Source of the DNA: Asaia lannensis NBRC 102526
GTDB lineage: Bacteria; Pseudomonadota; Alphaproteobacteria; Acetobacterales; Acetobacteraceae
Assembly: GCF_024054035.1 (NCBI RefSeq)
Contig: NZ_JAMXQU010000008.1
Coordinates: 1-64,000 of the forward strand
Direction of reading: 5' to 3'
DNA length: 64,000 nt
Part shown: positions 8,238 to 24,531 of the stretch, piece after piece
How positions within the stretch are numbered: position 1 is the first letter of the stretch
Layout of the letters: every line of letters starts with the position of its first letter
Notes under the pieces: model-generated
Told to the model about the DNA's origin: nothing
What the model saw: the letters and a program-made list of their open reading frames with translations, nothing else
Database searches by the model: none
Translations under genes and position numbers: made by a program

Positions 8238-9680
8238 TTACGTGCCGCAGAACGTCGCCCTGACGATTTGCGCGTCTTCGGGGGGGCGTTCATAGGTGGC
8301 ATCATCCTCGAACGGTCGGGTGATGCGCGTCAGAAGCGCTTCGAAAATACTGAAGTCCCCCGTCTCCGCAGCCTCTATCGCTTCAGCGATACGGTGATTG
8401 CGTGCAATGACGGCCGGGTTGCTTTTCAGCATCAGGGCCTGGCTTTCGGCCTCCGAAAGCGGGTCGAGCGCGCGACGCGCCTGCCAGCGCGACATCCACG
8501 AAGCGAGGTCGTCCGGCATGGCGTCGGACAGGCTGGCATCGAGCAGGTTTTCTCCACGGGCAAGCCGTCTGAATGTCAGGGTCCAGTCAAGCTGGTGCGT
8601 TTCCATACAGGCCAGAAGTGCCGCTATCAGAGCAGGATCGTCGTCATGGGGCTGTGACAGACCGAGTTTGGCCCGCATCAGATCGTCATAAGCCTCGGTG
8701 TAGAGCGGTAGAAACCGCCCGAGGGCCGATTGCGCGTGGTCCAGCGCCTTGTCTTCATCCGGGTCGAACAGAGGCAGAAGCGTCTCGGCCAGCCTTGCCA
8801 GATTCCAGCCCGCCAGTTTCGGCTGATTGGCATAGGCATAACGTCCGTTGCGGTCGATCGAACTGAACACCTTGCCTGCGCTATAGCTGTCGAGAAAGGC
8901 ACAGGGACCGTAATCGATCGTCTCGCCCGAAATCGCCATGTTATCGGTATTCATGACACCGTGAATGAAGCCAAGGCTCATCCATTGTGCAATCAGCCGT
9001 GCCTGTGCGGCCACCACGCCATCGTAGAGCGCCCTGACGGGATGCGCTGCCTCACGGGCACAAGGGTAATGACGTGCAATGGCCATATCGCACAAAAAGC
9101 CGATGGCCTCGCTGTTTTCCCGCACGGCGAAATACTGGAACGTCCCGACACGCAGATGACTGGCGGCCACACGTGCCAGAACGGCTCCTGGCTGAGGGCG
9201 ATCGCGCCAGACCGTCTCACCTGTCAGCACCGCCGAAAGGGCGCGCGTGGTCGGTACATGCAAGGCCGCCATGGCTTCGCTCACCAGATATTCGCGCAAT
9301 ACCGGCCCGAGTGCAGCAAGCCCGTCCCCACGGCGCGAGAACGGGGTCGGCCCCGATCCCTTGAGCTGGATGTCCTTTTCCCGGCCATTGCAATCGGTCA
9401 GCACACCCAGAAGATGGGCCCGCCCGTCGCCAAGCTGGGGCACGAACTGCCCGAACTGGTGACCGGCATAGGCCTGCGCGACGGGTGCCACATCGTTCAG
9501 CCGCAACTGTCCCCCGAGAAAGGCAAGTCCTTCATCGGATTTCAGCCAGTCGGGCGACAGGCCGAGCGACCGGGCTAGCGGTTCGTTGACCGCAATACCG
9601 CGCAGGCCGGTGAAGCGGGCCGGATCGGTCTGGACGGCCATGGTCGGCGGAAACGGGGCCGGGCGAAGGGGAGCACTCAT
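8238..9680 (-). CDS. selO: SelO/YdiU protein adenylyltransferase
   Basis: SelO is a pseudokinase-fold enzyme that transfers AMP from ATP to hydroxyl side chains of proteins and is linked to oxidative stress in the systems studied. 480 residues from the ATG at 9680, which has GAGG five bases upstream; the ATG at 9701 has no ribosome site. Family landmarks are QAYAGHQFGQFVPQLGDGRA near residue 70, DIQLKGSGPTPFSRRGDG near 100, and the catalytic/metal segment HGVMNTDNM followed by DYGPCAFLD near 240-265. It converges on rtcR with 22 bases between the stops. Confidence 0.95.
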   Translation of the reverse strand: MSAPLRPAPFPPTMAVQTDPARFTGLRGIAVNEPLARSLGLSPDWLKSDEGLAFLGGQLRLNDVAPVAQAYAGHQFGQFVPQLGDGRAHLLGVLTDCNGREKDIQLKGSGPTPFSRRGDGLAALGPVLREYLVSEAMAALHVPTTRALSAVLTGETVWRDRPQPGAVLARVAASHLRVGTFQYFAVRENSEAIGFLCDMAIARHYPCAREAAHPVRALYDGVVAAQARLIAQWMSLGFIHGVMNTDNMAISGETIDYGPCAFLDSYSAGKVFSSIDRNGRYAYANQPKLAGWNLARLAETLLPLFDPDEDKALDHAQSALGRFLPLYTEAYDDLMRAKLGLSQPHDDDPALIAALLACMETHQLDWTLTFRRLARGENLLDASLSDAMPDDLASWMSRWQARRALDPLSEAESQALMLKSNPAVIARNHRIAEAIEAAETGDFSIFEALLTRITRPFEDDATYERPPEDAQIVRATFCGT

Positions 9681-9931
9681 GAAACCTCGGCTGAAAAACA
9701 CATGCTGAAATTATATGTTTGAGATTATGCTGGGCCTGTCCAAGCCCGTAGGACACCCGGCAGAACATGCAGGAGAAAGACCTGCCCGGTGTGTGTCATC
9801 TCCATGTGGCGTTTTGTCAGAGATGGCGAGCGCGGAGAATGCTGCAAGGCTCGGGCGGTAAATGGGAGGATCGGATAAGTTTTTTTACCCTCTCCCTTCC
9901 CATTTCGCGACCGGACGTCCAAAACCCCCTC

Positions 9932-11341
9932 ATGTCGAAACACCCTTCTGCCGGCAGACGGATCGTCCATAATGTCAGCTTTCTGACACTGGGGCGCATT
10001 GCGACGGCAATATGCAGCTTTGCCTATATTGCCTTTGCCGTCAGGGCGCTCGGTCTGGCGTCGTTCGGTGTGCTGATCCTGATCCATTCCCTTGGCATCA
10101 TGGCTTCGACATTTTCCCGCATGCAGTCCTGGCAGACACTCATACGCTATGGCAACGAGCCCTATGCACAGCGCGATCTCGATCTGTTGCGCAGGATCAT
10201 CGGGTTCTGCATCCGTCTCGATCTGCTTTCGGCCTTGGTGGCCGTCTCGATCGGTCTGATCAGCGTGACATTCTACAGCCATGTCGCGCACTGGACTTCA
10301 TGGGTCACCACACTGGCCTATTTCTACGCGCTGATCTGTCCTTTCATGTATACCGGATGGAGCAATGGCGTTCTGCGCCTGACCGAGCGTTTTCACCTCG
10401 TTCCGGTCAGCGATACCATAACGGCCATCTTCCGGACGGCAGGCACGGCCGTCGGGTACGTGTTCCATCTCAAGCTCGGATTTTTCGTTCTGGTCTGGGC
10501 AGGCGCGGTGCTTCTGGATTACGGGCTGTTCCTGTATTTCGCCCTTTCCACGCTGCGTCATCAGATCGGGTTGCGCCTTCGCGTGCGCGATGTGTTGACC
10601 GGGTGGCGCTGGCAGTTGCCCGGCATGTGGGCGTTCACCCGTTCGACCAGTATCAATCAGACCCTTGGGGCTGTCTCGGGCCATATCAGCACGCTGGTCG
10701 TAGGCTCTCTGCTCGGCTCGGCCGAGGCCGCCGTATTCAGGATCTGCCGCCAGATTGCCGACGGGATCGTCACGCCGGCCCAGATGCTTTCGCCCGTGCT
10801 TTATCCCGAACTCGTCAAGATGCGCGACCGGCAGGACTGGTCGGGGCTCAAGCGCCTCACATGGAAAATCTTCGGTATTCTCTGTGCTGTGTCTGTTGTC
10901 CTGCTTCTGGTCGCAGCGTTTTTCGGCGGTCGCATTTTCTCGCTCATGCTGCATATCCATCTGCATGGCACGACCTATTACATCTCGATCATGTTGGTTT
11001 CTGCTGTCCTGACCCTGCTGGTCGTGCCACTGGAGCCGCTTTTGACGGTCATGGGGCAGATAGGCTTTCTGATGGCCAACCGGACCTGGATTACCCTTGC
11101 CTATTTCCCCGTCCTTTATGGCCTGACCGCGCATTTCTCGCTCGCCGGGGCCTGTTATGCGACGACGTTCAGCAGCTTTCTCATGTTCGTGACACGTCTG
11201 TGGAAAGCAGCGATGTCGTCCCTGCGCGTCCATGGTACGACGCCTCCCTCAGTGAGCCAGCCCTTAACGCCCGCTGTGCAGGAGGACGCCGCTGCTTCCG
11301 ATGCTGCACGCTCCGAAGAGGGGCTGATCGTCAAGGCGTAA
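9932..11341 (+). CDS. Polysaccharide flippase-like membrane protein (MATE/MVF superfamily)
   Basis: 469 residues from the ATG at 9932. About 12-14 hydrophobic segments run through the chain, starting with the family-typical opening RIVHNVSFLTLGRIATAICSFAYIAFAVRALG, which matches the first helices of Wzx/RfbX O-antigen and exopolysaccharide flippases. The last 35 residues are a hydrophilic Pro/Ala/Glu tail in the cytoplasm. It would move lipid-linked glycan units across the inner membrane. The ribosome site is poor, and starts further upstream (9839) are possible. No glycosyltransferases or polymerase lie next to it, so its partner pathway is unknown. It converges on the Ehr-like operon. Confidence 0.8.
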   Translation: MSKHPSAGRRIVHNVSFLTLGRIATAICSFAYIAFAVRALGLASFGVLILIHSLGIMASTFSRMQSWQTLIRYGNEPYAQRDLDLLRRIIGFCIRLDLLSALVAVSIGLISVTFYSHVAHWTSWVTTLAYFYALICPFMYTGWSNGVLRLTERFHLVPVSDTITAIFRTAGTAVGYVFHLKLGFFVLVWAGAVLLDYGLFLYFALSTLRHQIGLRLRVRDVLTGWRWQLPGMWAFTRSTSINQTLGAVSGHISTLVVGSLLGSAEAAVFRICRQIADGIVTPAQMLSPVLYPELVKMRDRQDWSGLKRLTWKIFGILCAVSVVLLLVAAFFGGRIFSLMLHIHLHGTTYYISIMLVSAVLTLLVVPLEPLLTVMGQIGFLMANRTWITLAYFPVLYGLTAHFSLAGACYATTFSSFLMFVTRLWKAAMSSLRVHGTTPPSVSQPLTPAVQEDAAASDAARSEEGLIVKA

Positions 11342-11353
11342 AGGCCTTGGAAC

Positions 11354-12754
11354 CTACTGCTCCGCTCCGCCAGGATCGAAGCCGAAAGACGCCAGAACAA
11401 GCCTGTCATCCCACCGGTTGTGCAGCATCTGCGGCAGAACCCCCAGAAGCGCGCGTGCCGGATCGCGGAGCATGATTCCTTCGATACGCGAGTCCTGAAG
11501 GCGTACCCAGCACCAGATATCGCCATGCGGACCTTCCACAGCGCCAATACCCTCGCCCGAACCGGTCGGCAGAGCGGGCGTGGTAGGGAGAGGCGTGCCG
11601 AATTGCGAAGCCACACGTTCGATGCGGCGCAGGGAATCGCGTATCTCGTCCAGTCTCAGGGATTGCCTCGCCCAGGCATCCCCGGCCATACGGGAACCGG
11701 CCCGCCCGGGAACATGGCGCATATCGTCCTCAAGCTGGCGCAGATCGAAAGAGCGTCCCGAAGCACGCCCTGCGATCCCCCCCAGACAGAAAATGCGGGC
11801 ACGCGACGATGTCAGCGTGCCTAGCCCTTCGAGGCATTCGGCCATCTGGGCATGAAGCGTCTCCAATGGATCCAGACGCGGCATGAGCGCGTCGTGAACG
11901 GCATGGGCGAGGCCGCAGATATCGAGTCCTGATGCAATGCCCTCGGGCGTGATGGAATCCGTCAGCCGTCTTGTCGCCCCATGATGCGCACATAGACTGG
12001 CGCAGAGATCTTCGGCCAGACGGGCATGGGTGGCCAGCAAGCCGAAGCCCGACAATTCCGCCAGCAGGGCAATATCGCGGCAATGGACGGCAATGCGCTC
12101 GATTTCAGACAGCAATGTGCGTGCATCGCGCACATCGTCGCCCGGCACGATGCCCAGCGCCTGTTCCACAGCACGCGAATAGGCCAGGGGTGCTGCAACG
12201 AAGGCAGAAGAGACGCTGCGCCCGATGAGCTTCAGAACTGCTTCAGGAGGCTGACCGATGAGTTGCTGAAGCAGTCCTCTATGGGCAGCACCCGGGATAA
12301 TCGTGCCATTACCCCAGGCAAAGGGAGCCATGTCGCTGTGGAGCGCATCGAGAAACGCGGGAGAGGGCGGGGCATGATCCGATGGGACGGAACGGCGGGA
12401 CAGCGGCGCGATGCTCGCCCATCCGCCTCGGTCCAGCGCAGGCTCCGTATCGGCCGCGCCCAAGGGCAGACATCCCCATAGATCCTGCGCGATGCGCTCT
12501 GGCCATGATGCGGGCGGCAGGACAGCCGAAAGCGCGAAATAACGTCCGTCGATCAGAGGCGTGCTCACCATGAGCGGTGTGCGGTGATCGAGAAACAGCG
12601 CATAGGCAAAGCTGTCATCGCACCAGTGCGCAATGAACCAGCCGGGCGCTTTTGTCAGCATGTCCCGCCACTGTCCCTCATCCAGACGGTAATGCTGCGG
12701 CGCTATGGCCTCTCCTGCCCGTATTGCGGCAATCATGCTCATGGTGCCCGCCAT
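11354..12754 (-). CDS. Hydrogenase-4/NuoCD-like large subunit without Ni-Fe ligands (HyfG-like, Ehr type)
   Basis: 466 residues, about 90 fewer than E. coli HyfG. Residues 1-130 resemble the NuoC-like part (YFALSAVLPPASWPERIAQDLWG), and the rest the NuoD/large subunit, with AHRGLLQQLIG at 157-167. Where Ni-Fe enzymes have RICGxC, this protein reads GRSVSSAFVAAP (179-190), and the C-terminal DPCxxC reads DPARALL, so all four ligand cysteines are absent. That places it with energy-converting-hydrogenase-related (Ehr) subunits rather than true hydrogenases. It overlaps the previous gene by 16 bases. It is the last gene of the operon; the usual NuoB-like partner that should follow is missing. Confidence 0.8.
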   Translation of the reverse strand: MAGTMSMIAAIRAGEAIAPQHYRLDEGQWRDMLTKAPGWFIAHWCDDSFAYALFLDHRTPLMVSTPLIDGRYFALSAVLPPASWPERIAQDLWGCLPLGAADTEPALDRGGWASIAPLSRRSVPSDHAPPSPAFLDALHSDMAPFAWGNGTIIPGAAHRGLLQQLIGQPPEAVLKLIGRSVSSAFVAAPLAYSRAVEQALGIVPGDDVRDARTLLSEIERIAVHCRDIALLAELSGFGLLATHARLAEDLCASLCAHHGATRRLTDSITPEGIASGLDICGLAHAVHDALMPRLDPLETLHAQMAECLEGLGTLTSSRARIFCLGGIAGRASGRSFDLRQLEDDMRHVPGRAGSRMAGDAWARQSLRLDEIRDSLRRIERVASQFGTPLPTTPALPTGSGEGIGAVEGPHGDIWCWVRLQDSRIEGIMLRDPARALLGVLPQMLHNRWDDRLVLASFGFDPGGAEQ

Positions 12755-13893
12755 TTCAAAGGCCAGTCAGACAGGATAGGGAGTGCCCCTCCAGAGGGTA
12801 GGGACGTCGTCCACCCTGTCACGATACCTGCACCAAGACCGAGACCCAGAAGGGCCAGCACGATCGCACGGTCGCGCCACGAGGCAGGAAAGCAGGAGGT
12901 AAGCTGGCAGCGACTGGCCAGCACGCAAAGCGCCAGACCGCAGAGCCCGGTAAGAAGAATGCCCGATCGTGCCAATCCCGCGAGTACCATGCAGCTTGCT
13001 GCAAAGCCCGGCCAGGGTGGCAGGCCGCACTGGATCCAGCGTCGCATGGGAAGCGGGAGGACGGGTTCGGCTGCAAGGGCGAATGCGCTGGTCAGAAAGA
13101 GCAGCGATGGCACGATACCTATCGGCAGGGCGGCAGCGATAATGGCCAGTGCCACAGAGATCCGCGGGCTGTCCTGATCCGTCAGAACGCAGATCCAGAG
13201 TCCGGCGAGCCCTGCAAGAAGAAGCACCATATGGGTCATGTCGCGCTCTGGTAGGCGCAGCATCAGGGCAATCGCACTGAGGCAAAGCAGCATATCGAGC
13301 AGGATCGCATTTCTGTAATCGGCCCGTATGCTGCGACCGGAGGTCCCCGGCAGACCAAGACCGGCGAGAAGACAGAGGCCGACGGCCATGAACAGATCGC
13401 CTAGGCGAAGCAGGGCAGGATCGGCCCCAAGAGTGGTGAGGCTCGTGCCGAGCAGGGTCATGACAAGACCTGCCAGTCGCAGGCGCATCGGTTCCCAGGC
13501 CTGTTTGGCCCGTGAGGTGACCAGTGTTTCATTGAGCGCGAGCACGAGCGCAGCACAGCCGGTCAGACAGGCCACGGGCAGGACGCTTTTCGCACAAAGG
13601 GCCAGCATGATCACGGCACTGGCCAGAAAATTGAGCGATGTTGGAATGCGTCCGTTTGCTTCGCGCCATGCGAGCAGGGGAACAGTGCTCGCAAGCAGGC
13701 ATCCCCAGCGTGCCAGAAGATCCTGATTGTAGAGAAGCGGTGTGAGAACGAGCGTAAGGGCAAGGCCTGCAAGCGCGAAAATCCGCGCGGAACTGCGCGC
13801 GCGCGCTTCAGGCAGAAGAATGAGCAGACAAGCTGCAATGAGCGGCCAGGCCGGGATCAGGAATTGCGCGATCTGGTGCAGGGTCTCACCCAT
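12739..13893 (-). CDS. Antiporter-like membrane subunit, HyfF/NuoN-related, shortened
   Basis: 384 residues with about 11-12 hydrophobic segments, against about 526 in E. coli HyfF. Position in the operon and the pattern of helices place it with the NuoL/M/N-type subunits. The hallmark TM5 Glu and the TM7 Lys of the KxxxVPxHxWLPDA type cannot be found: the matching region reads LLAGLGLPGTSGRS (around 180-190). A GLPP(W)PGF segment near residue 285 is the best-kept family landmark. It overlaps the gene before it by 8 bases and the one after by 16. Probably a structural membrane subunit that no longer pumps ions; this is an inference from memory-based alignment. Confidence 0.65.
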   Translation of the reverse strand: MGETLHQIAQFLIPAWPLIAACLLILLPEARARSSARIFALAGLALTLVLTPLLYNQDLLARWGCLLASTVPLLAWREANGRIPTSLNFLASAVIMLALCAKSVLPVACLTGCAALVLALNETLVTSRAKQAWEPMRLRLAGLVMTLLGTSLTTLGADPALLRLGDLFMAVGLCLLAGLGLPGTSGRSIRADYRNAILLDMLLCLSAIALMLRLPERDMTHMVLLLAGLAGLWICVLTDQDSPRISVALAIIAAALPIGIVPSLLFLTSAFALAAEPVLPLPMRRWIQCGLPPWPGFAASCMVLAGLARSGILLTGLCGLALCVLASRCQLTSCFPASWRDRAIVLALLGLGLGAGIVTGWTTSLPSGGALPILSDWPLKWRAP

Positions 13894-14440
13894 CGATGTT
13901 GCTCCCGATGCGTGACCAGGCGAGACGCGGCATCAACCAGCCCCCTAGCGCAAGCAGCCCGCTCCAGACGAGCGCGGTGCCGAGAATGAGGGGCCAGCTT
14001 TGCGTATGTCCCCCGAGGAGGAGCAGACCGTTAAGCGCGCACAGAAGCCCGGTCAGCTGGAAAAGCGGCGTCGGTAGGGCCGCAGCGCATAAACCGGAAA
14101 GTACGATCCCCGTGCAGATCAGGACCGGCAGCCCTGGCATGGCAGCAAGGGCCGTCAGCAGAACGAGCAGAATGGCTGCACAGACGGCGAGTGCTGCAGA
14201 TTGCTGGGCGGCACGCCGCTCGCGCAGATCGCCGGAGCGCCAGGCGATATAGCGACGCAGGACGATCCACCCTGCCCCGTTGAGCAGGGGCAGTAGAATG
14301 AGCGCGGCAAGTGCAGGGGCACCATGCCCGATCCCCGACACGCACGCTGCGGCGCAGGTGCCGTGAAAAGGCAGGATACGGGCATCCCGCCCTATGGCGG
14401 CAAGGGCAATCAGCAGGGTCAGGCCGAGCAGGACTGTCAT
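13886..14440 (-). CDS. HyfE-like membrane subunit of the Ehr-like complex
   Basis: 184 residues with about six hydrophobic segments, starting MTVLLGLTLLIALA at an ATG (14440) that overlaps the preceding stop codon as ATGA. A longer frame to 14671 exists but runs through the preceding gene and is rejected. HyfE proteins (about 216 residues in E. coli) are NuoK-like at one end and sit between HyfC/D and HyfF, which is exactly this position. No catalytic residue is expected. Assignment rests on gene order, size and hydrophobicity more than on motif. Confidence 0.6.
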   Translation of the reverse strand: MTVLLGLTLLIALAAIGRDARILPFHGTCAAACVSGIGHGAPALAALILLPLLNGAGWIVLRRYIAWRSGDLRERRAAQQSAALAVCAAILLVLLTALAAMPGLPVLICTGIVLSGLCAAALPTPLFQLTGLLCALNGLLLLGGHTQSWPLILGTALVWSGLLALGGWLMPRLAWSRIGSNIDG

Positions 14441-15339
14441 GATGCGATTCTCCCGGCCAGGACCAGCAGAATGGCTGCCCCGCTCAGCACAAGGGCCAGG
14501 CGGGCCGAGGGCAGCGGTCGCAGAACACGCCAGCCTGTTGCCAGAACCACGAGCACCGCAAGTTTGGCCGGGGCAGCCACACACCAAAGCAGGGCAAGAT
14601 GGCCGAATGAGCTCGTGGCAGTGGCAATGGAATCCGGCCAGACCAGATCGGCAACGAGCAGATACCAGCACAGACAGGAAAGATCGTGTCTGTAGCGCAG
14701 CAGGCTTCGGTGTCGCCCTTCGGCACCGGCACTCAGCCCTTCAAGAACGGCGTACGAAAGGAAATTCCGGTTCAGGATCAGCAGAACTGCCGTCGCCACG
14801 AAGACGAGACCACCGAGCAGGGCAGGGGCGGGTTGAAGGAGACGCTGTTGCAACAGCCCGTCGAGCGTTGCCGCACCGGGCAGGCCGATCGTGATAAGCG
14901 TGCCTGTCAGGGCAAGGAGCGGGACAAGAAAAATCAGATCCTGACCGATCGCTGCGAGGCTGGCGCGGTTTCTGAGGGCGATCATGCGCGTGGGCGCCTG
15001 ACTCTGGGCTTGGGCCCAGATCGGCACGCAGGAGAGGATCAGCAGTATGCCGCAGGCCAGTGGCTCGGACAGGAAGCCGAAGGCGGAAAATGTGCTGGCA
15101 TAGGGCACACCCAGACAGGCCAGACCCGCTGCACAAAGCGCCATCCATCCCGATGCCGGTACCGTTCCCGGCTGGTTCCAGCCTGTACGGATCTGACGCC
15201 AGCGCCAGCCCGGGCGTGGGCCGTGGCGCCCGGTGAACAGGGCCTCCATGGCGCATTCCAGATCGGTCAGAAAGGGGGCAATGACGGCAAGGATCGCGAG
15301 CTGCGCGAGGGTTATGCAAAGACCGAGTACGATTGTCAT
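14437..15339 (-). CDS. HyfC/NuoH-like membrane subunit of the Ehr-like complex
   Basis: 300 residues from the ATG at 15339, which overlaps the stop of the upstream gene (ATGA). About eight hydrophobic segments. Family landmarks are a long loop after the first helices (APFLTDLECAMEALFTGRHGPRPGWRWRQI), matching the amphipathic loop of NuoH/HycD near the quinone chamber, and a late segment LNRNFLSYAVLEG where relatives have an E-x-R-x-P-x-D motif. The acidic E/D residues of that motif are thus changed. This subunit normally links the large subunit to the membrane arm. A start at 15387 is possible but would extend into the upstream gene. Confidence 0.65.
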   Translation of the reverse strand: MTIVLGLCITLAQLAILAVIAPFLTDLECAMEALFTGRHGPRPGWRWRQIRTGWNQPGTVPASGWMALCAAGLACLGVPYASTFSAFGFLSEPLACGILLILSCVPIWAQAQSQAPTRMIALRNRASLAAIGQDLIFLVPLLALTGTLITIGLPGAATLDGLLQQRLLQPAPALLGGLVFVATAVLLILNRNFLSYAVLEGLSAGAEGRHRSLLRYRHDLSCLCWYLLVADLVWPDSIATATSSFGHLALLWCVAAPAKLAVLVVLATGWRVLRPLPSARLALVLSGAAILLVLAGRIAS

Positions 15340-16931
15340 GCGGCCCAGCCCAACCATGCCAGTGCACAGGCCAGAAGGACGAGCCACAGCGGGAGGATCT
15401 GTCGGTTGAGGACCCCGCCCAGACGCCCTGCGGCCGGCGCAGAACCGTCTGCGGACGCTTGTGCGGAATGGTGCATGACGCGGCCAGCGATATCACGCAT
15501 CAGATGTCGTCGCGATGCCATGACCCGTCTGAGTCCCCAGGGGAGACGAAGACGAAAACCCGGTAAAGGCCAGTCTGTCAGCAGGGGTATATGGGTAGGA
15601 AGATGGGCTGCCAGATGCGGCATAACGAAGGGAGCAAGCAATGCGGGTACTGCAAAGATCAGGGCAGGATACCAGAACGCGCCATCTCCCCCAGCGATCG
15701 ACCAGATCGGCCATGAGCGCCAGAGTTCCGGGGCGACGCCTGCAACATGCTGGACAGCCTCATGAACGAGCCCCAGCAGAAGCCCCGGACAGATCGACAG
15801 GCATAATCCCAGTGTCAGGGCAGGCATTGCTGCGCGATCGGCCCAGACAGCCGGGCTATAACCAGGTGTGGGGATCTCGCCTGCCATAGAGTCATGATCG
15901 GATCGAACGGGATCGGACAATGGAACGCGCCGCTTCCCCGAGAGGCTCTGCCATGTCTCCAGCCAGGCCCTGACCATAAGGAGACCGATGACGAGGCTCA
16001 GGATCATGGCACCCGCTGTCCAGCTCGGCGAGAGTCCGGCCAGACCACTGACACAATGGAGCCCGAGCCAGAATGGCAGAAAGCCTGCAAGAGGAGGAAG
16101 GGGTGTTCTGAAGAACCCTGTTATGCGGTCGGAGGCGCTCAGCGCCAGAGCCAGAATGAATGCTTCTCCTCCCGCAAGGGCGCTGTCCGGCAGGCCGCCC
16201 GCCCGGGCACTGAGGGTTAGTCCAAGCAGCAGAACGGGCCAGAAAGTCAGTGCGAGCCTGACTGGAAGGAGCAGGCAAAGCCCACTTCCCAGAATGCACA
16301 ACGCGACCGGCCAGAAAAACCCGTGTTGCGCCAGAAGCCCCGGCACGAGGAGCGCATAGGCCAGAACGGGCAGGTCGATGAAACCGGGCAAAAGGACAAG
16401 GCTGAAGGCCGGCGCGAGCGGACCGAGTGCGGGAATGATGGCCGCGACGACTGCAAGACAGCCGCCCGGTGCCAGAAATCCGAGTTTCCAGCGCTGGAGC
16501 CGGGAGGCGGAAGAAGGTGATCGCCCCTCGATCAGGCACGGCATGAAACATATCAGGCTCAGGGCAGGCGATGCGCAGATCAGTCCGAGTGCTCCGCTCG
16601 CCGCGCTGACCGGTTTGTCCTTCAGGGCAGGCGAGAAACAGGCAATGGACCAGAGAAGAAGCCAGCATCCACGAAGCGGATCGAGAGCGAGAGGTCCGAG
16701 ATGGATTTCATGCAGCCCACAGGCAGCCCATCCGGCGATGACGATCTGTGCGATGAGCGCTGCAAGACGCAAAAGGATGAGGGCATGGCTTTGCCCGAAC
16801 ATTGCCGACAGCCTGATGGCAAAACAGACAGGCAGAAGGGCAAGGGCGAAGGTCGGAAACAGGGTCTCATCCTGACAGAAAAGAAGCGATATCCGGCGGA
16901 TTGCGTCGTCGTTGTGACGTGATACCGGCAA
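15336..16931 (-). CDS. Antiporter-like membrane subunit, HyfB/NuoL-related, shortened
   Basis: Up to 531 residues with about 14 hydrophobic segments; E. coli HyfB has about 670. First gene of the five-gene operon. The only in-frame start before the first helix is a TTG at 16931; the first ATG (16802) would remove that helix, so the 5' end is uncertain. The conserved WE in TM5 reads MP (CFMPCLIEG near residue 135), and no K-x-x-x-VP-x-H-x-WLP segment is found, so the proton path seen in the nuoL, nuoM and nuoN products of this same window is gone. Residues 330-420 and 440-520 contain long loops. Identity rests on order and topology. Confidence 0.6.
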   Translation of the reverse strand: MPVSRHNDDAIRRISLLFCQDETLFPTFALALLPVCFAIRLSAMFGQSHALILLRLAALIAQIVIAGWAACGLHEIHLGPLALDPLRGCWLLLWSIACFSPALKDKPVSAASGALGLICASPALSLICFMPCLIEGRSPSSASRLQRWKLGFLAPGGCLAVVAAIIPALGPLAPAFSLVLLPGFIDLPVLAYALLVPGLLAQHGFFWPVALCILGSGLCLLLPVRLALTFWPVLLLGLTLSARAGGLPDSALAGGEAFILALALSASDRITGFFRTPLPPLAGFLPFWLGLHCVSGLAGLSPSWTAGAMILSLVIGLLMVRAWLETWQSLSGKRRVPLSDPVRSDHDSMAGEIPTPGYSPAVWADRAAMPALTLGLCLSICPGLLLGLVHEAVQHVAGVAPELWRSWPIWSIAGGDGAFWYPALIFAVPALLAPFVMPHLAAHLPTHIPLLTDWPLPGFRLRLPWGLRRVMASRRHLMRDIAGRVMHHSAQASADGSAPAAGRLGGVLNRQILPLWLVLLACALAWLGWAA

Positions 16932-17284: not shown

Positions 17285-17560
17285 TTAAATCGGAAGAAAT
17301 TCTCCTGCGCGCTCGTTGGCGGCATCGATGAGGGCATTCTGGCTGTTACCCTCGAAATGCGGGTCGTAGAAAACGAACTCCAGTTCCGGCTCCATTTGCG
17401 TGCAGGCCAGTGCGCATTCCAGATAGTCGCTCAGATGACCCGTGAAGCTCGGCAGATGAACGCTCGGCAAATGCGAAACCCATACGCGCCTGTCCGATTC
17501 GAACTGATGGGAAATGCCGGGGTGAGCCGCAAGAAATTTCTCGAATTCTTCCTTGGTCAT
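17285..17560 (-). CDS. Small acidic cytoplasmic protein of unknown function
   Basis: 91 residues, no signal peptide and no membrane segment. It starts MTKEEFEKFLAAHPG, with AAGG about ten bases upstream of the ATG. It is rich in Glu, Phe and His and contains two Cys (LECALACT near residues 48-54). No family is recognised. A flanking AT-rich region at 17600-17640 probably carries its promoter. Codon use and the clear start support a real gene. Confidence 0.6.
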   Translation of the reverse strand: MTKEEFEKFLAAHPGISHQFESDRRVWVSHLPSVHLPSFTGHLSDYLECALACTQMEPELEFVFYDPHFEGNSQNALIDAANERAGEFLPI

Positions 17561-17741: not shown

Positions 17742-18587
17742 TCAGATCATCTGGAGCGGCGTTTTGTGCTGAGGCGGCCTGAAATGCGCATCGAGTTGCC
17801 TCAGATCGTCGTCACGCAGTGTGATCGACAGGGCTTCTAGATTTGCGCGCAGATGCGCCCTCCTGCCTGCTTTGGGGATTGAGAGCACATTCGGGTTTCT
17901 CAGTGTCCAGGCGAGGGCGATCTGCGCCGGTCTCGCGATGCCCGAAGGGGTTTCGTAGGTACGGGCAATCTGCCCCAGCACAGAATCGTCGAGCAGTTCG
18001 CCTCCCTGCCCGAGGGGAGAGTAGGCAATCGACACGACCTTGTTGTCACGATCGTGGTCGAGCAGATCGTATTCGATCCCGCGCGCCTCGAGATTGTAGA
18101 GTATCTGATTGGCTGAACAACTCGTATCGAGTGCATCGAGTTCTTCCATATCCTCGGTGTCGAAATTCGATACCCCCCAGCGCCTGATGGCTCCACGCGA
18201 TTTCAGATGTTCCATGGCCTCCACGGTTTCCTCCAGAGGTACGCCGCCACGCCAGTGGAGCAGATAGAGATCCAGATAATCCGTACCCAGACGCTTCAGT
18301 GAGGCCTGACAGCTTCGTATGGTGCCATCGAATGTCGCGTTGGAGGGCAGCACCTTGCTGATGAGAAAGACCGCGTGACGTTGCCCGTCTATGGCTTCGC
18401 CCACCAGTCGCTCCGAACGCCCGCTACCGTACATCTCTGCCGTATCGATCACGCTGAGCCCGGCATCGAGACCTGCGCGCAGACTGGCAATCTCCTCGGC
18501 GCACGAAGCATTGGAGTCGCCCATGTTCCAGCTGCCCATGCCGAGTGCCGGAACCGAGCATCCATCCCGGAAAGTAACGGTTTTCAT
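17742..18587 (-). CDS. Aldo/keto reductase
   Basis: 281 residues from the ATG at 18587, which has an AAGGA site; the in-frame start at 18626 is rejected. An NADPH-dependent carbonyl reductase of the (beta/alpha)8 fold. The catalytic set is visible: Asp and Tyr in DTAEMYGSG near residues 47-55, Lys in LISKV near 75, and His in LYLLHWRGG near 108. The cofactor-binding end has IPKAGRRAHLRANLEA near 245, as in family members that take NADPH. Substrate unknown. Divergent from the bicupin gene across a 191-base region with two dyads, so the pair may be co-regulated. Confidence 0.92.
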   Translation of the reverse strand: MKTVTFRDGCSVPALGMGSWNMGDSNASCAEEIASLRAGLDAGLSVIDTAEMYGSGRSERLVGEAIDGQRHAVFLISKVLPSNATFDGTIRSCQASLKRLGTDYLDLYLLHWRGGVPLEETVEAMEHLKSRGAIRRWGVSNFDTEDMEELDALDTSCSANQILYNLEARGIEYDLLDHDRDNKVVSIAYSPLGQGGELLDDSVLGQIARTYETPSGIARPAQIALAWTLRNPNVLSIPKAGRRAHLRANLEALSITLRDDDLRQLDAHFRPPQHKTPLQMI

Positions 18588-18650
18588 CAAAAATTCCTTT
18601 TCAATCTCCTTTCTCAAGCGCCACACGGAAGGAGACGTTTGCCTTTTGAC

Positions 18651-22513: not shown

Positions 22514-22960
22514 TCAACCGGCTTTCTGCCAGCCGCGCTCGCCCTGCTGCCAGTAGGCCAGATTATGCCCGGCCTGTCTGCTCCTGCTCCAGAATGCGCG
22601 TGCCCGGCTGACAGCCTCGGTGTCGTTGCCATCGAACAGGGTAAACACACGGTCGAAAACCTCTATTCCCTGATCGATGCCGCCATCGAGCAGAAACAGG
22701 AAGCGGGCCTCGTTGGGAACGTCCTCACCCTTGGTCAGCCAGATCGGCTGTCTGGGTCCATGGCCCATGCTCTGACTACCATGGGGCAGCCAGACAGGGG
22801 TTTTCGCTTTCCAGAGCGCCTCGTCGAGCTGCTTGACCTGCGCGGCATCGCGACAGCGTATGACGGCACGCTGTCCCACTTCCAGTGTGCGGCCCAGAAG
22901 CGGAGCAAGGGCATCTTCAAGCGTGGTGCGGGTCAGATGATAAAAGCCGATATCGCTCAT
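22514..22960 (-). CDS. holC: DNA polymerase III chi subunit
   Basis: 148 residues beginning MSDIGFYHLTRTTLEDALAPLL, typical of HolC, which links the clamp loader to single-strand binding protein. The ATG at 22960 overlaps the pepA stop codon as ATGA, so it is translated after pepA; a longer frame to 23044 is rejected. The family pattern of an FY-x-L start, VIRCRDAAQVKQLDEALW near 40 and the DGGI...VFTLFDGND segment near 100 is clear. The pepA-holC arrangement is common in proteobacteria. Confidence 0.93.
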   Translation of the reverse strand: MSDIGFYHLTRTTLEDALAPLLGRTLEVGQRAVIRCRDAAQVKQLDEALWKAKTPVWLPHGSQSMGHGPRQPIWLTKGEDVPNEARFLFLLDGGIDQGIEVFDRVFTLFDGNDTEAVSRARAFWSRSRQAGHNLAYWQQGERGWQKAG

Positions 22961-24456
22961 GAGGCCTTTTCGTCTGTCGTTTCGTGATGACGCACAAGCG
23001 CATCGAGCAGACGTACGCCGAAGCCTGTGGCGCCCTTGGGGCATTGAGGCACCGCATCCGAACGCCAGGCAACACCGGCAATATCGAGATGGGCCCAGGG
23101 CGTCTCGCCTACGAAGCGGGCCAGGAACTGTGCCGCCGTGATCGAACTGCCGGGACGCCCGGTGATGTTTTTCATGTCCGCAATGTCCGAGCGGAGCTGA
23201 CGATCATAGGCCTTGCCCATCGGCATGCGCCATACGGCTTCGCCCGTGGTCTCACCCGCTTCGAACAGGGCGCCCGCCAAAGCGTCGTCATTGCTGAACA
23301 GGCCAGCGCGTACATGGCCCAGACTGACGACGATCGCACCTGTCAGTGTGGCCAGATCGATCATCAGACGCGGCTGGAAACGCTCTTTCGTATAGGCAAG
23401 CACGTCCGCCAGAACCAGTCGCCCCTCGGCATCCGTATTCAGCACCTCGATGGTCTTTCCGGCATAGCTGCGCACCACATCGCCGGGGCGCTGGGCATTG
23501 CCCGAAAGCATGTTTTCGACCAGTCCGACCACGCCGATGACATGAAGTCCGGCCTTGCGTCGTGCGACAGCTTCCATTGCCCCGACTACAGCCGCTGCCC
23601 CGCCCATATCGGTCTTCATTTCATCCATGCCGGCTGCGGGCTTGATGGAGATACCGCCTGAATCGAACGTTACGCCCTTGCCAATGAAGGCAATCGGGGC
23701 ATCTTCCGATCCGCGATAGCGCATGATGGCAACGCGGGCCTCCTGATCGCTGCCCTGTGCCACGCCCAGCAGGGCGCCGAAACCCAGTTCGCGCAGTTTG
23801 GCAGCGTCGAGAATATCCACTTCGACGCCCAGATCGCGCAGCGTCTCGATACGACGCGCAAATTCAGGCGGTGTCAGCACGTTCGGGGGTTCGCTCACCA
23901 GATCGCGTGCGCGGAAAACACCCTGGGCGACAGCCTTGAGGCTCGCCCATTCCTTGCGCGCGGTCTCGGGATTCTCGACGCCGAGATGCAGGCGCTGAAG
24001 CTGAGGCGCATTTTCGGGTTCATCGGTATGATAGAGATCGAAGCTGTAGCGTCCCAAAGCGGCACCATAGGCTGCATGTGCGGCATATGCCGCACATGCG
24101 CCGGCAAAGGCCAGGTCGGCATGGGCCGTATCGCGTACGGCGCGTGCGGCCTGACCGCCAGCGGCTTCCATCGTCGGAATGTCCAGCTCGTTTTCAGGCC
24201 CGCAGCCGATCAGAACGACACGGGCAAGTGCTGCGCAGGGGGCAAGCAGGACGCAGCTCTGATCGCGCTGACCCTTGAAGCGCGAGATCGCGACAGCGCG
24301 ACGCAGAGCCCCGCCTGTTGCACGGTCAAGATGCGCAAAGGGACCATTGGCGACGTCGAAATCAGGTCCGGTCAGTAGAACGAGTGTCTGCTCGGATTTC
24401 GGGACGCCATTGCCCTGAAGAATTGGAAACGGTTCCTGAATCTGGATATCGAGCAT
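22957..24456 (-). CDS. pepA: Leucyl aminopeptidase (M17)
   Basis: 499 residues. The enzyme removes N-terminal residues from peptides in the cytoplasm with two metal ions, and in some bacteria also binds DNA. The metal and catalytic segments are seen: GKGVTFDSGGISIKPAAGMDEMKTDMGGAAAV near 245-275 (with the Lys and Asp ligands) and NTDAEGRLVLADVL near 335-348 (Asp/Glu ligands and Arg). The N-terminal alpha/beta domain is present but weakly conserved, as usual. It is followed by holC with a 4-base overlap and is divergent from a TSUP permease. Confidence 0.97.
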   Translation of the reverse strand: MLDIQIQEPFPILQGNGVPKSEQTLVLLTGPDFDVANGPFAHLDRATGGALRRAVAISRFKGQRDQSCVLLAPCAALARVVLIGCGPENELDIPTMEAAGGQAARAVRDTAHADLAFAGACAAYAAHAAYGAALGRYSFDLYHTDEPENAPQLQRLHLGVENPETARKEWASLKAVAQGVFRARDLVSEPPNVLTPPEFARRIETLRDLGVEVDILDAAKLRELGFGALLGVAQGSDQEARVAIMRYRGSEDAPIAFIGKGVTFDSGGISIKPAAGMDEMKTDMGGAAAVVGAMEAVARRKAGLHVIGVVGLVENMLSGNAQRPGDVVRSYAGKTIEVLNTDAEGRLVLADVLAYTKERFQPRLMIDLATLTGAIVVSLGHVRAGLFSNDDALAGALFEAGETTGEAVWRMPMGKAYDRQLRSDIADMKNITGRPGSSITAAQFLARFVGETPWAHLDIAGVAWRSDAVPQCPKGATGFGVRLLDALVRHHETTDEKAS

Positions 24457-24531
24457 GATCTGTCCGGTCTGTGACTGAGAATAGCGCCACTATCGTCAGG
24501 CTGCCCGCATAAGGCAAGGCATAGGGTGAAT

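What the first reader, a model, noticed from the sequence alone, without database searches (positions are those of the whole stretch)
11354..16931. Intact Ehr-like (hydrogenase-4-related) operon that lacks its NuoB-like subunit
Five minus-strand genes follow the order HyfB, HyfC, HyfE, HyfF, HyfG with 4, 4, 8 and 16-base overlaps. In Hyf and Ehr clusters a NuoB-like small subunit (HyfI) and often a ferredoxin-type subunit accompany HyfG. Here the HyfG-like gene ends 12 bases from a convergent flippase gene, and no NuoB-like or ferredoxin gene is present apart from the nuo operon. Every subunit is shorter than its E. coli counterpart (531 against about 670, 384 against 526, 466 against 555). 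Tight coupling and open frames argue against decay. A membrane complex with a large-subunit-like protein but no known redox partner may be a new function: quinone- or ion-linked sensing, or a partner of the real complex I.
Basis: partly seen in the sequence, partly recalled or inferred. Interest (0 to 1): 0.85.

Follow-up and report, generated by a model that had tools for sequence, protein, structure and literature searches.

The report
Proton-pump-stripped complex I cousin, split locus
The operon is real and under selection, and its supposedly missing iron-sulfur subunit sits elsewhere in the same genome; the surprise is that in acetic acid bacteria this relative of respiratory complex I appears to have lost its known proton-pumping and substrate-site signatures while keeping its iron-sulfur centre.

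Summary
The five overlapping minus-strand genes are real, but the headline claim is wrong. The NuoB-like subunit (HyfI) is encoded in the same genome on another contig (G000:C4:274195-274677), with all four cluster cysteines. It is co-conserved with HyfG: 147 of 150 family genomes agree on presence or absence (cut-offs chosen after seeing the data), and 9 of 9 in the genus have both. In Brytella and Gluconobacter the two genes are still close together. In the Asaia lineage the block LAP-HolC-AKR-HyfBCEFG moved away and HyfI stayed with its old neighbours. It is not an ordinary Ehr complex: HyfB/HyfF lack the antiporter signature, HyfC the ND1-loop glutamates, HyfE its ENG glutamate and HyfG the beta1-beta2 loop. 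HyfI keeps its four cysteines in 47 of 48 sequences, and dN/dS is 0.01-0.34. Nine of 16 named genomes (Gluconobacter, Saccharibacter, Bombella) keep the complex without complex I. Best reading: a non-pumping, single-cluster redox complex, its electron partners unknown.

The parts
15336..16931 (-). HyfB-like membrane subunit (antiporter-like fold, no antiporter sequence signature). TTG start at 16931 doubtful; true start probably near 16709.
14437..15339 (-). HyfC-like (NuoH/HycD homologue); E-channel/ND1-loop motif missing
   Evidence: ATGA overlap with HyfB; profile and gene order; alignment shows the P-D-P--H-E block missing
13886..14440 (-). HyfE-like; conserved ENG glutamate replaced
   Evidence: ATGA overlap with HyfC; profile and gene order; alignment
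12739..13893 (-). HyfF-like membrane subunit (antiporter-like fold, no antiporter sequence signature)
11354..12754 (-). HyfG-like (NuoC/D-like) subunit; no cysteines at the Ni-ligand positions, beta1-beta2 loop deleted; HRG, GRASGR..D.R and EG.G..EG..G..W kept
   Evidence: PF00346 31.3 bits; alignments
17742..18626 (-). Aldo/keto reductase upstream of hyfB; syntenic in many relatives, possible but unproven partner
   Evidence: PF00248 175.5 bits; relatives of it in 18 of the 30 family cluster loci compared and upstream of HyfB in 28 of 42 named loci; not found in the 10 Bombella/Saccharibacter-type loci
22517..24489 (-). HolC-like and leucyl-aminopeptidase-like ORFs that travel with the hyf block; mark the moved segment (names recalled from the sequences, no family search run)
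9767..11341 (+). Flippase-like gene, convergent with hyfG (flank shared by Asaia/Swaminathania after relocation; with SelO at 8238-9701)
   Evidence: PF01943 19.7 bits, below its cut-off of 28.2; SelO PF02696 365.7 bits; shared flanks

Best explanation
A six-subunit complex descended from the Ehr type (complex I/group 4 hydrogenase superfamily), encoded by hyfBCEFG in the window plus hyfI at a second locus. Shown: the sixth subunit gene exists, is co-conserved and keeps its [4Fe-4S] ligands; the gene set is under purifying selection; it persists where complex I is absent; the known sequence signatures of proton translocation and of the substrate loop are absent. Inferred: the subunits assemble; the membrane arm now serves as anchor or scaffold rather than pump; the HyfG-HyfI module still carries electrons on its single cluster, between an unidentified soluble donor and an acceptor, or reads redox state. 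The quinone-type pocket formed with the beta1-beta2 loop and ND1 loop is gone, so ordinary quinone reduction with pumping is unlikely.
For: HyfI on C4; co-occurrence 147 of 150 (the 150 include genomes with canonical Ehr) and 9 of 9; HyfG-HyfI closeness in named relatives; four Cys in 47 of 48 HyfI. HyfG motif H158-R159-G160 kept in 21, 19 and 20 of 21. Antiporter signature strong in both B and F in 13 of 50 loci, partial or atypical in 7, none in 30 including the window (own profile); Pfam at E<=1 gives PF00361 in 5 of 30 HyfB and 3 of 30 HyfF. beta1-beta2 loop, ND1 loop and ENG motifs largely go with the antiporter signature. Fold kept. dN/dS 0.01-0.34 in 14 pairs. No complex I in 9 of 16 carriers. 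HypD in 0 of 19 genomes.
Against: No biochemical data; assembly, cluster and electron transfer are inferred. No donor (ferredoxin-like subunit) or acceptor is known. One relative (G100, L104) has lost 3 of 4 HyfI cysteines, so redox chemistry may be dispensable there. HyfG is in pieces in G126 and in G150 and G154, so the complex can be lost or those assemblies are poor. The hyf genes evolve faster than housekeeping neighbours: dN/dS of the LAP gene 0.04-0.11 and of the 225-aa neighbour 0.01-0.05 against 0.06-0.24 for HyfB. Motif loss is judged by profile and regex, which miss variants (L108, L109, L122); unconventional residues could replace the lost ones. The HyfB model is only moderate (pLDDT 73) and Foldseek alone gave no match at E<=0.001.
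Confidence: 0.55

Rival explanations
1. The complex is now structural or regulatory (scaffold, assembly platform or ligand sensor), and the Fe-S cluster is only structural.
For: Substrate loop, ND1 loop and ion path signatures lost; no donor subunit in the operon; G100 keeps the operon with 3 of 4 cysteines lost; in the window's genome hyfI overlaps by 4 bases the start of an NrtR-type regulator ORF beside nadA- and nadB-like genes.
Against: Four cysteines kept in 47 of 48 HyfI; the HRG motif, which I recall as lying by the cluster in complex I, is kept.
Confidence: 0.22
2. An ordinary Ehr complex that still couples redox to ion translocation through unconventional residues.
For: Antiporter-like folds kept in the models. 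E. coli FHL itself tolerates changes at several antiporter positions (PMC9474812, passages read).
Against: Losses are concerted in the 30 loci without the antiporter signature, among them the ND1 loop and E-channel positions important in FHL. Exceptions and gaps: L113 keeps the beta1-beta2 pattern and its B, C and E were not found; L086 has HyfG in pieces; in some of the 30 the E subunit was not found.
Confidence: 0.12
3. Decaying operon.
For: Shortened subunits; HyfG broken in G126, G150 and G154; faster evolution than neighbours.
Against: dN/dS 0.01-0.34 for all six genes (14 pairs; HyfI in 11 of them); kept in 1.9-2.1 Mb genomes; co-conservation.
Confidence: 0.04
4. One reading: a NuoB-less complex, or an accessory of the real complex I.
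For: No NuoB-like gene next to this operon in the window.
Against: HyfI found; complex kept where complex I is absent.
Confidence: 0.02

Closest known systems
Canonical Ehr / hydrogenase-4-like HyfBCEFGI operons of other Acetobacteraceae (e.g. G143, G062; loci L087, L098)
   Same: Same gene order B-C-E-F-G-I, HyfG without Ni-binding cysteine pairs, HyfI with the four-Cys cluster site; HyfG tree places the window form among them
   Different: Canonical forms keep the antiporter Glu/Lys, ND1-loop PVDNPATHLE, ENG and GPxH..PGHF loop; the window form keeps none of these and has hyfI at a second locus
E. coli hydrogenase 4 / formate hydrogenlyase (HyfABCDEFGHIJ, HycBCDEFG)
   Same: Homologous B, C, E, F, G, I; HyfB model closest to HycC
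   Different: No Ni site, no HyfA/HyfH ferredoxin-type, HyfD or HyfJ gene in this operon, HypD in 0 of 19 genomes
Respiratory complex I (nuo operon in the same window)
   Same: HyfG~NuoCD, HyfI~NuoB, HyfC~NuoH, HyfB/F~NuoL/M/N fold
   Different: No NADH module in the operon; proton path and quinone loop signatures absent; persists in 9 of 16 named genomes without complex I

Membership tests
Ehr (energy-converting hydrogenase-related complex) | Large subunit of NuoD/HyfG type without Ni-coordinating cysteines | tested here: met
Ehr (energy-converting hydrogenase-related complex) | NuoB-like small subunit with [4Fe-4S] ligands | tested here: met
   Found on contig C4 with four Cys
Ehr (energy-converting hydrogenase-related complex) | Mrp antiporter-like subunits with the charged ion-translocation residues | tested here: not met
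   No antiporter signature in window HyfB/HyfF, though the predicted fold is kept
Ehr (energy-converting hydrogenase-related complex) | NuoH-type anchor with ND1 loop/E-channel glutamates | tested here: not met
   Block missing in the alignment
Ehr (energy-converting hydrogenase-related complex) | Descent from the same gene cluster | tested here: met
   Gene order and HyfG tree, quick method
Group 4 [NiFe] hydrogenase | CxxC pairs binding NiFe and Hyp maturation | tested here: not met
   No cysteines at those positions in HyfG; HypD in 0 of 19 genomes
Respiratory complex I | Quinone loop (beta1-beta2) and NADH module in the same operon | tested here: not met
   Loop deleted; no NADH-module gene among the five ORFs
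Any of the above | Measured redox or ion-translocation activity | not testable with these tools
   Needs biochemistry

The most novel reading that the evidence does not exclude
A complex I-superfamily machine that evolution has turned from an ion pump into a redox or NAD-state sensor (or non-pumping electron relay) in acetic acid bacteria: membrane arm kept only as scaffold, cluster kept as the working part, and in Asaia the cluster subunit encoded with an NrtR-type NAD regulator and nadA/nadB.
Probability: 0.3. Interest if true: 0.85.

Novelty: new variant of a known kind. Interest (0 to 1): 0.7.

Why it matters
The complex I superfamily is known for coupling redox chemistry to ion movement. 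A widespread, selected member that looks stripped of the coupling parts but keeps its Fe-S centre would be a natural dissection of what the arms are for. Gluconobacter, which keeps it without complex I, makes it directly testable. It also corrects a wrong inference: the 'missing' subunit is simply split from the operon.

Tried and rejected
Absence of a NuoB partner: rejected. Partner of complex I: rejected as a general explanation. Decay: rejected for the lineage. Hydrogenase: rejected. Promoter/terminator scan: 2 promoter-like sites (shuffles 2.1) and 2 terminator-like sites (shuffles 5.6), no excess. Neighbours of canonical clusters were only clustered by similarity; no family search was run on them and no partner was named. 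Literature: searches (open PMC library only; I saw titles and starts of abstracts, and only 20 of 22 papers and 20 of 67) listed no paper on this complex in acetic acid bacteria. The main text of the knockout-collection paper PMC8602642 holds no 'hydrogenase' and no 'complex I' (passages). The aldo/keto reductase as obligate partner: rejected, because it was not found beside the operon in the 10 Bombella/Saccharibacter-type loci L180-L188 and L190.

Counting caveats. My first cysteine count by regex undercounted and was replaced by alignment columns. The ND1-loop and ENG regexes miss variants in canonical loci L108 and L109, and an ND1-type loop in L122, which I had scored as absent. In 10 of the 50 loci no E subunit was found, so ENG was not scored there; in L116 and L125 no HyfI was found in the fetched stretch; in L113 B, C and E were not found; L086's HyfG is a piece. 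Gene starts were chosen automatically, and some HyfI and HyfG rows carry extra N-terminal residues into the dN/dS count (e.g. 216-aa HyfI rows). Two Asaia-genus HyfG were in pieces and not used for dN/dS. The profile is narrow and misses lost-type genomes such as G040, G122, G042, G030 and G100.

Full report

The missing subunit is not missing. PF01058 hits two places in the genome: nuoB in the window, and a 160-aa protein at G000:C4:274195-274677. The second aligns with the HyfI that lies beside HyfG in relatives, with Cys36, Cys39, Cys103 and Cys138 at the cluster positions. I compared presence in 150 family genomes, a sample drawn by the tool, calling HyfG present at E<=1e-9 and HyfI at E<=1e-15; these cut-offs were set after seeing the lists. 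Both were present in 122, neither in 25, and 3 disagreed: G009 and G031, where the hit lies at a contig end, and G069, an 85%-complete assembly. G029, counted as lacking HyfI, is a borderline case (1.5e-15). These 150 include genomes with canonical Ehr clusters, so the test speaks for the pair HyfG-HyfI in general. In the genus, 9 of 9 genomes have both, with HyfG in two pieces in G150 and G154.

How the locus split. In Brytella the order is LAP-HolC-AKR-hyfBCEFG-NUDIX-hyfI-nrtR; in Gluconobacter hyfI follows hyfG; in Saccharibacter and Bombella sp. ESL0385 (L180, L182) the same stretch also holds Sua5, CysQ, nadA/nadB and nrtR. In the window's genome hyfI sits with Sua5, CysQ, NUDIX, nrtR and nadA/nadB, while LAP, HolC, AKR and hyfBCEFG lie in the window. 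The simplest reading is that the block moved and left hyfI behind. Some of these gene names are recalled from the sequences; AKR, NUDIX, NrtR, SelO and the inositol-phosphatase-type gene have Pfam support.

It is not an ordinary Ehr. Of 50 clusters compared, 13 have strong antiporter signatures in both HyfB and HyfF, 7 weak, partial or atypical ones, and 30, the window included, none (own profile; Pfam at E<=1 gives PF00361 in 5 of 30 HyfB and 3 of 30 HyfF). The other motifs largely follow: the beta1-beta2 loop pattern in 13 of the 13 strong loci and 1 (L113) of the other 37; the ND1-loop pattern in 12 of 13 and 0 of 37 by regex, though L122 carries a variant that the regex missed; ENG in 11 of 13 and 0 of the 27 others in which an E subunit was found. 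In the window HyfG the beta1-beta2 loop is deleted. By contrast, all four HyfI cysteines are kept in 47 of 48 sequences, the exception being G100, which lost three. The HRG motif of HyfG is kept (H in 21, R in 19, G in 20 of 21); that it lies near the cluster is recalled from complex I, not tested. On a quick HyfG tree the loss label needs 5 changes, with one supported 28-row set holding 26 of the 29 rows so labelled, so there were probably several losses and one main one.

Selection and independence. dN/dS is 0.01-0.34 for the six genes in 14 pairs (HyfI in 11 of them). The window pairs have near-saturated dS and no HyfI. The hyf genes are less constrained than the LAP neighbour (0.04-0.11) or the 225-aa neighbour (0.01-0.05) in the same call. 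Five Gluconobacter, one Saccharibacter and three Bombella genomes, 9 of 16 tested, have exactly one PF01058 protein, at the HyfI place, and no PF00361 protein. This agrees with the statement in PMC4596401 (passages read) that G. oxydans has no nuo operon. HypD is found in 0 of 19 genomes. The narrow HyfB profile hits 53 of 299 genomes of the order, all 53 in the window's family; the kinship of most genomes without a match was not shown, and known lost-type genomes are missed, so this is a lower bound and does not show that the form stops at the family.

Mechanism. PMC9474812 (passages read) describes the beta1-beta2 loop as the proton-donating loop conserved in the superfamily and the HycD glutamates as the E-channel. 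With both absent along with the antiporter residues, conventional coupling is unlikely. What selection holds is the cluster site and conserved HyfG motifs. I therefore favour a membrane-anchored, single-cluster electron relay or redox sensor (0.55 in all; that it is a six-gene set, split, and lacks the known pumping signatures, about 0.9). The functional step is inference.

Known or new. Ehr complexes are known as hydrogenase relatives lacking Ni/Fe ligands and suspected to couple redox to ion translocation (PMC6349859, passages read). By descent this is Ehr; by two tested features (charged antiporter residues, ND1 loop) it is not a regular member. The listed literature searches found no description of the acetic-acid-bacterial form, but they cover only the open library and I saw capped listings.

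Noticed in passing
L104:10584-11201 (G100): HyfI-like protein that has lost three of the four cluster cysteines while the operon is kept; a possible cluster-free version.
   Followed up: partly
L086:3615-5225 (G126); G150:C35 and G154:C34: HyfG-like gene in three pieces (G126) or two pieces (G150, G154): local decay or assembly faults. Described only.
   Followed up: no
L003:10175-11074: NrtR-type regulator ORF overlaps the hyfI stop by 4 bases and precedes nadA- and nadB-like genes; a relative of it also follows hyfI in Brytella.
   Followed up: partly
window 17285-17560 (-): 91-aa ORF between the aldo/keto reductase and hyfB with no Pfam match.
   Followed up: no
L098 and L125 (both G062): One genome carries both a canonical Ehr cluster with antiporter signatures and a second cluster without them.
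   Followed up: partly
G029:C1:754838-755200: Borderline HyfI-like hit (1.5e-15) in a 1.9 Mb genome with no HyfG hit.
   Followed up: no
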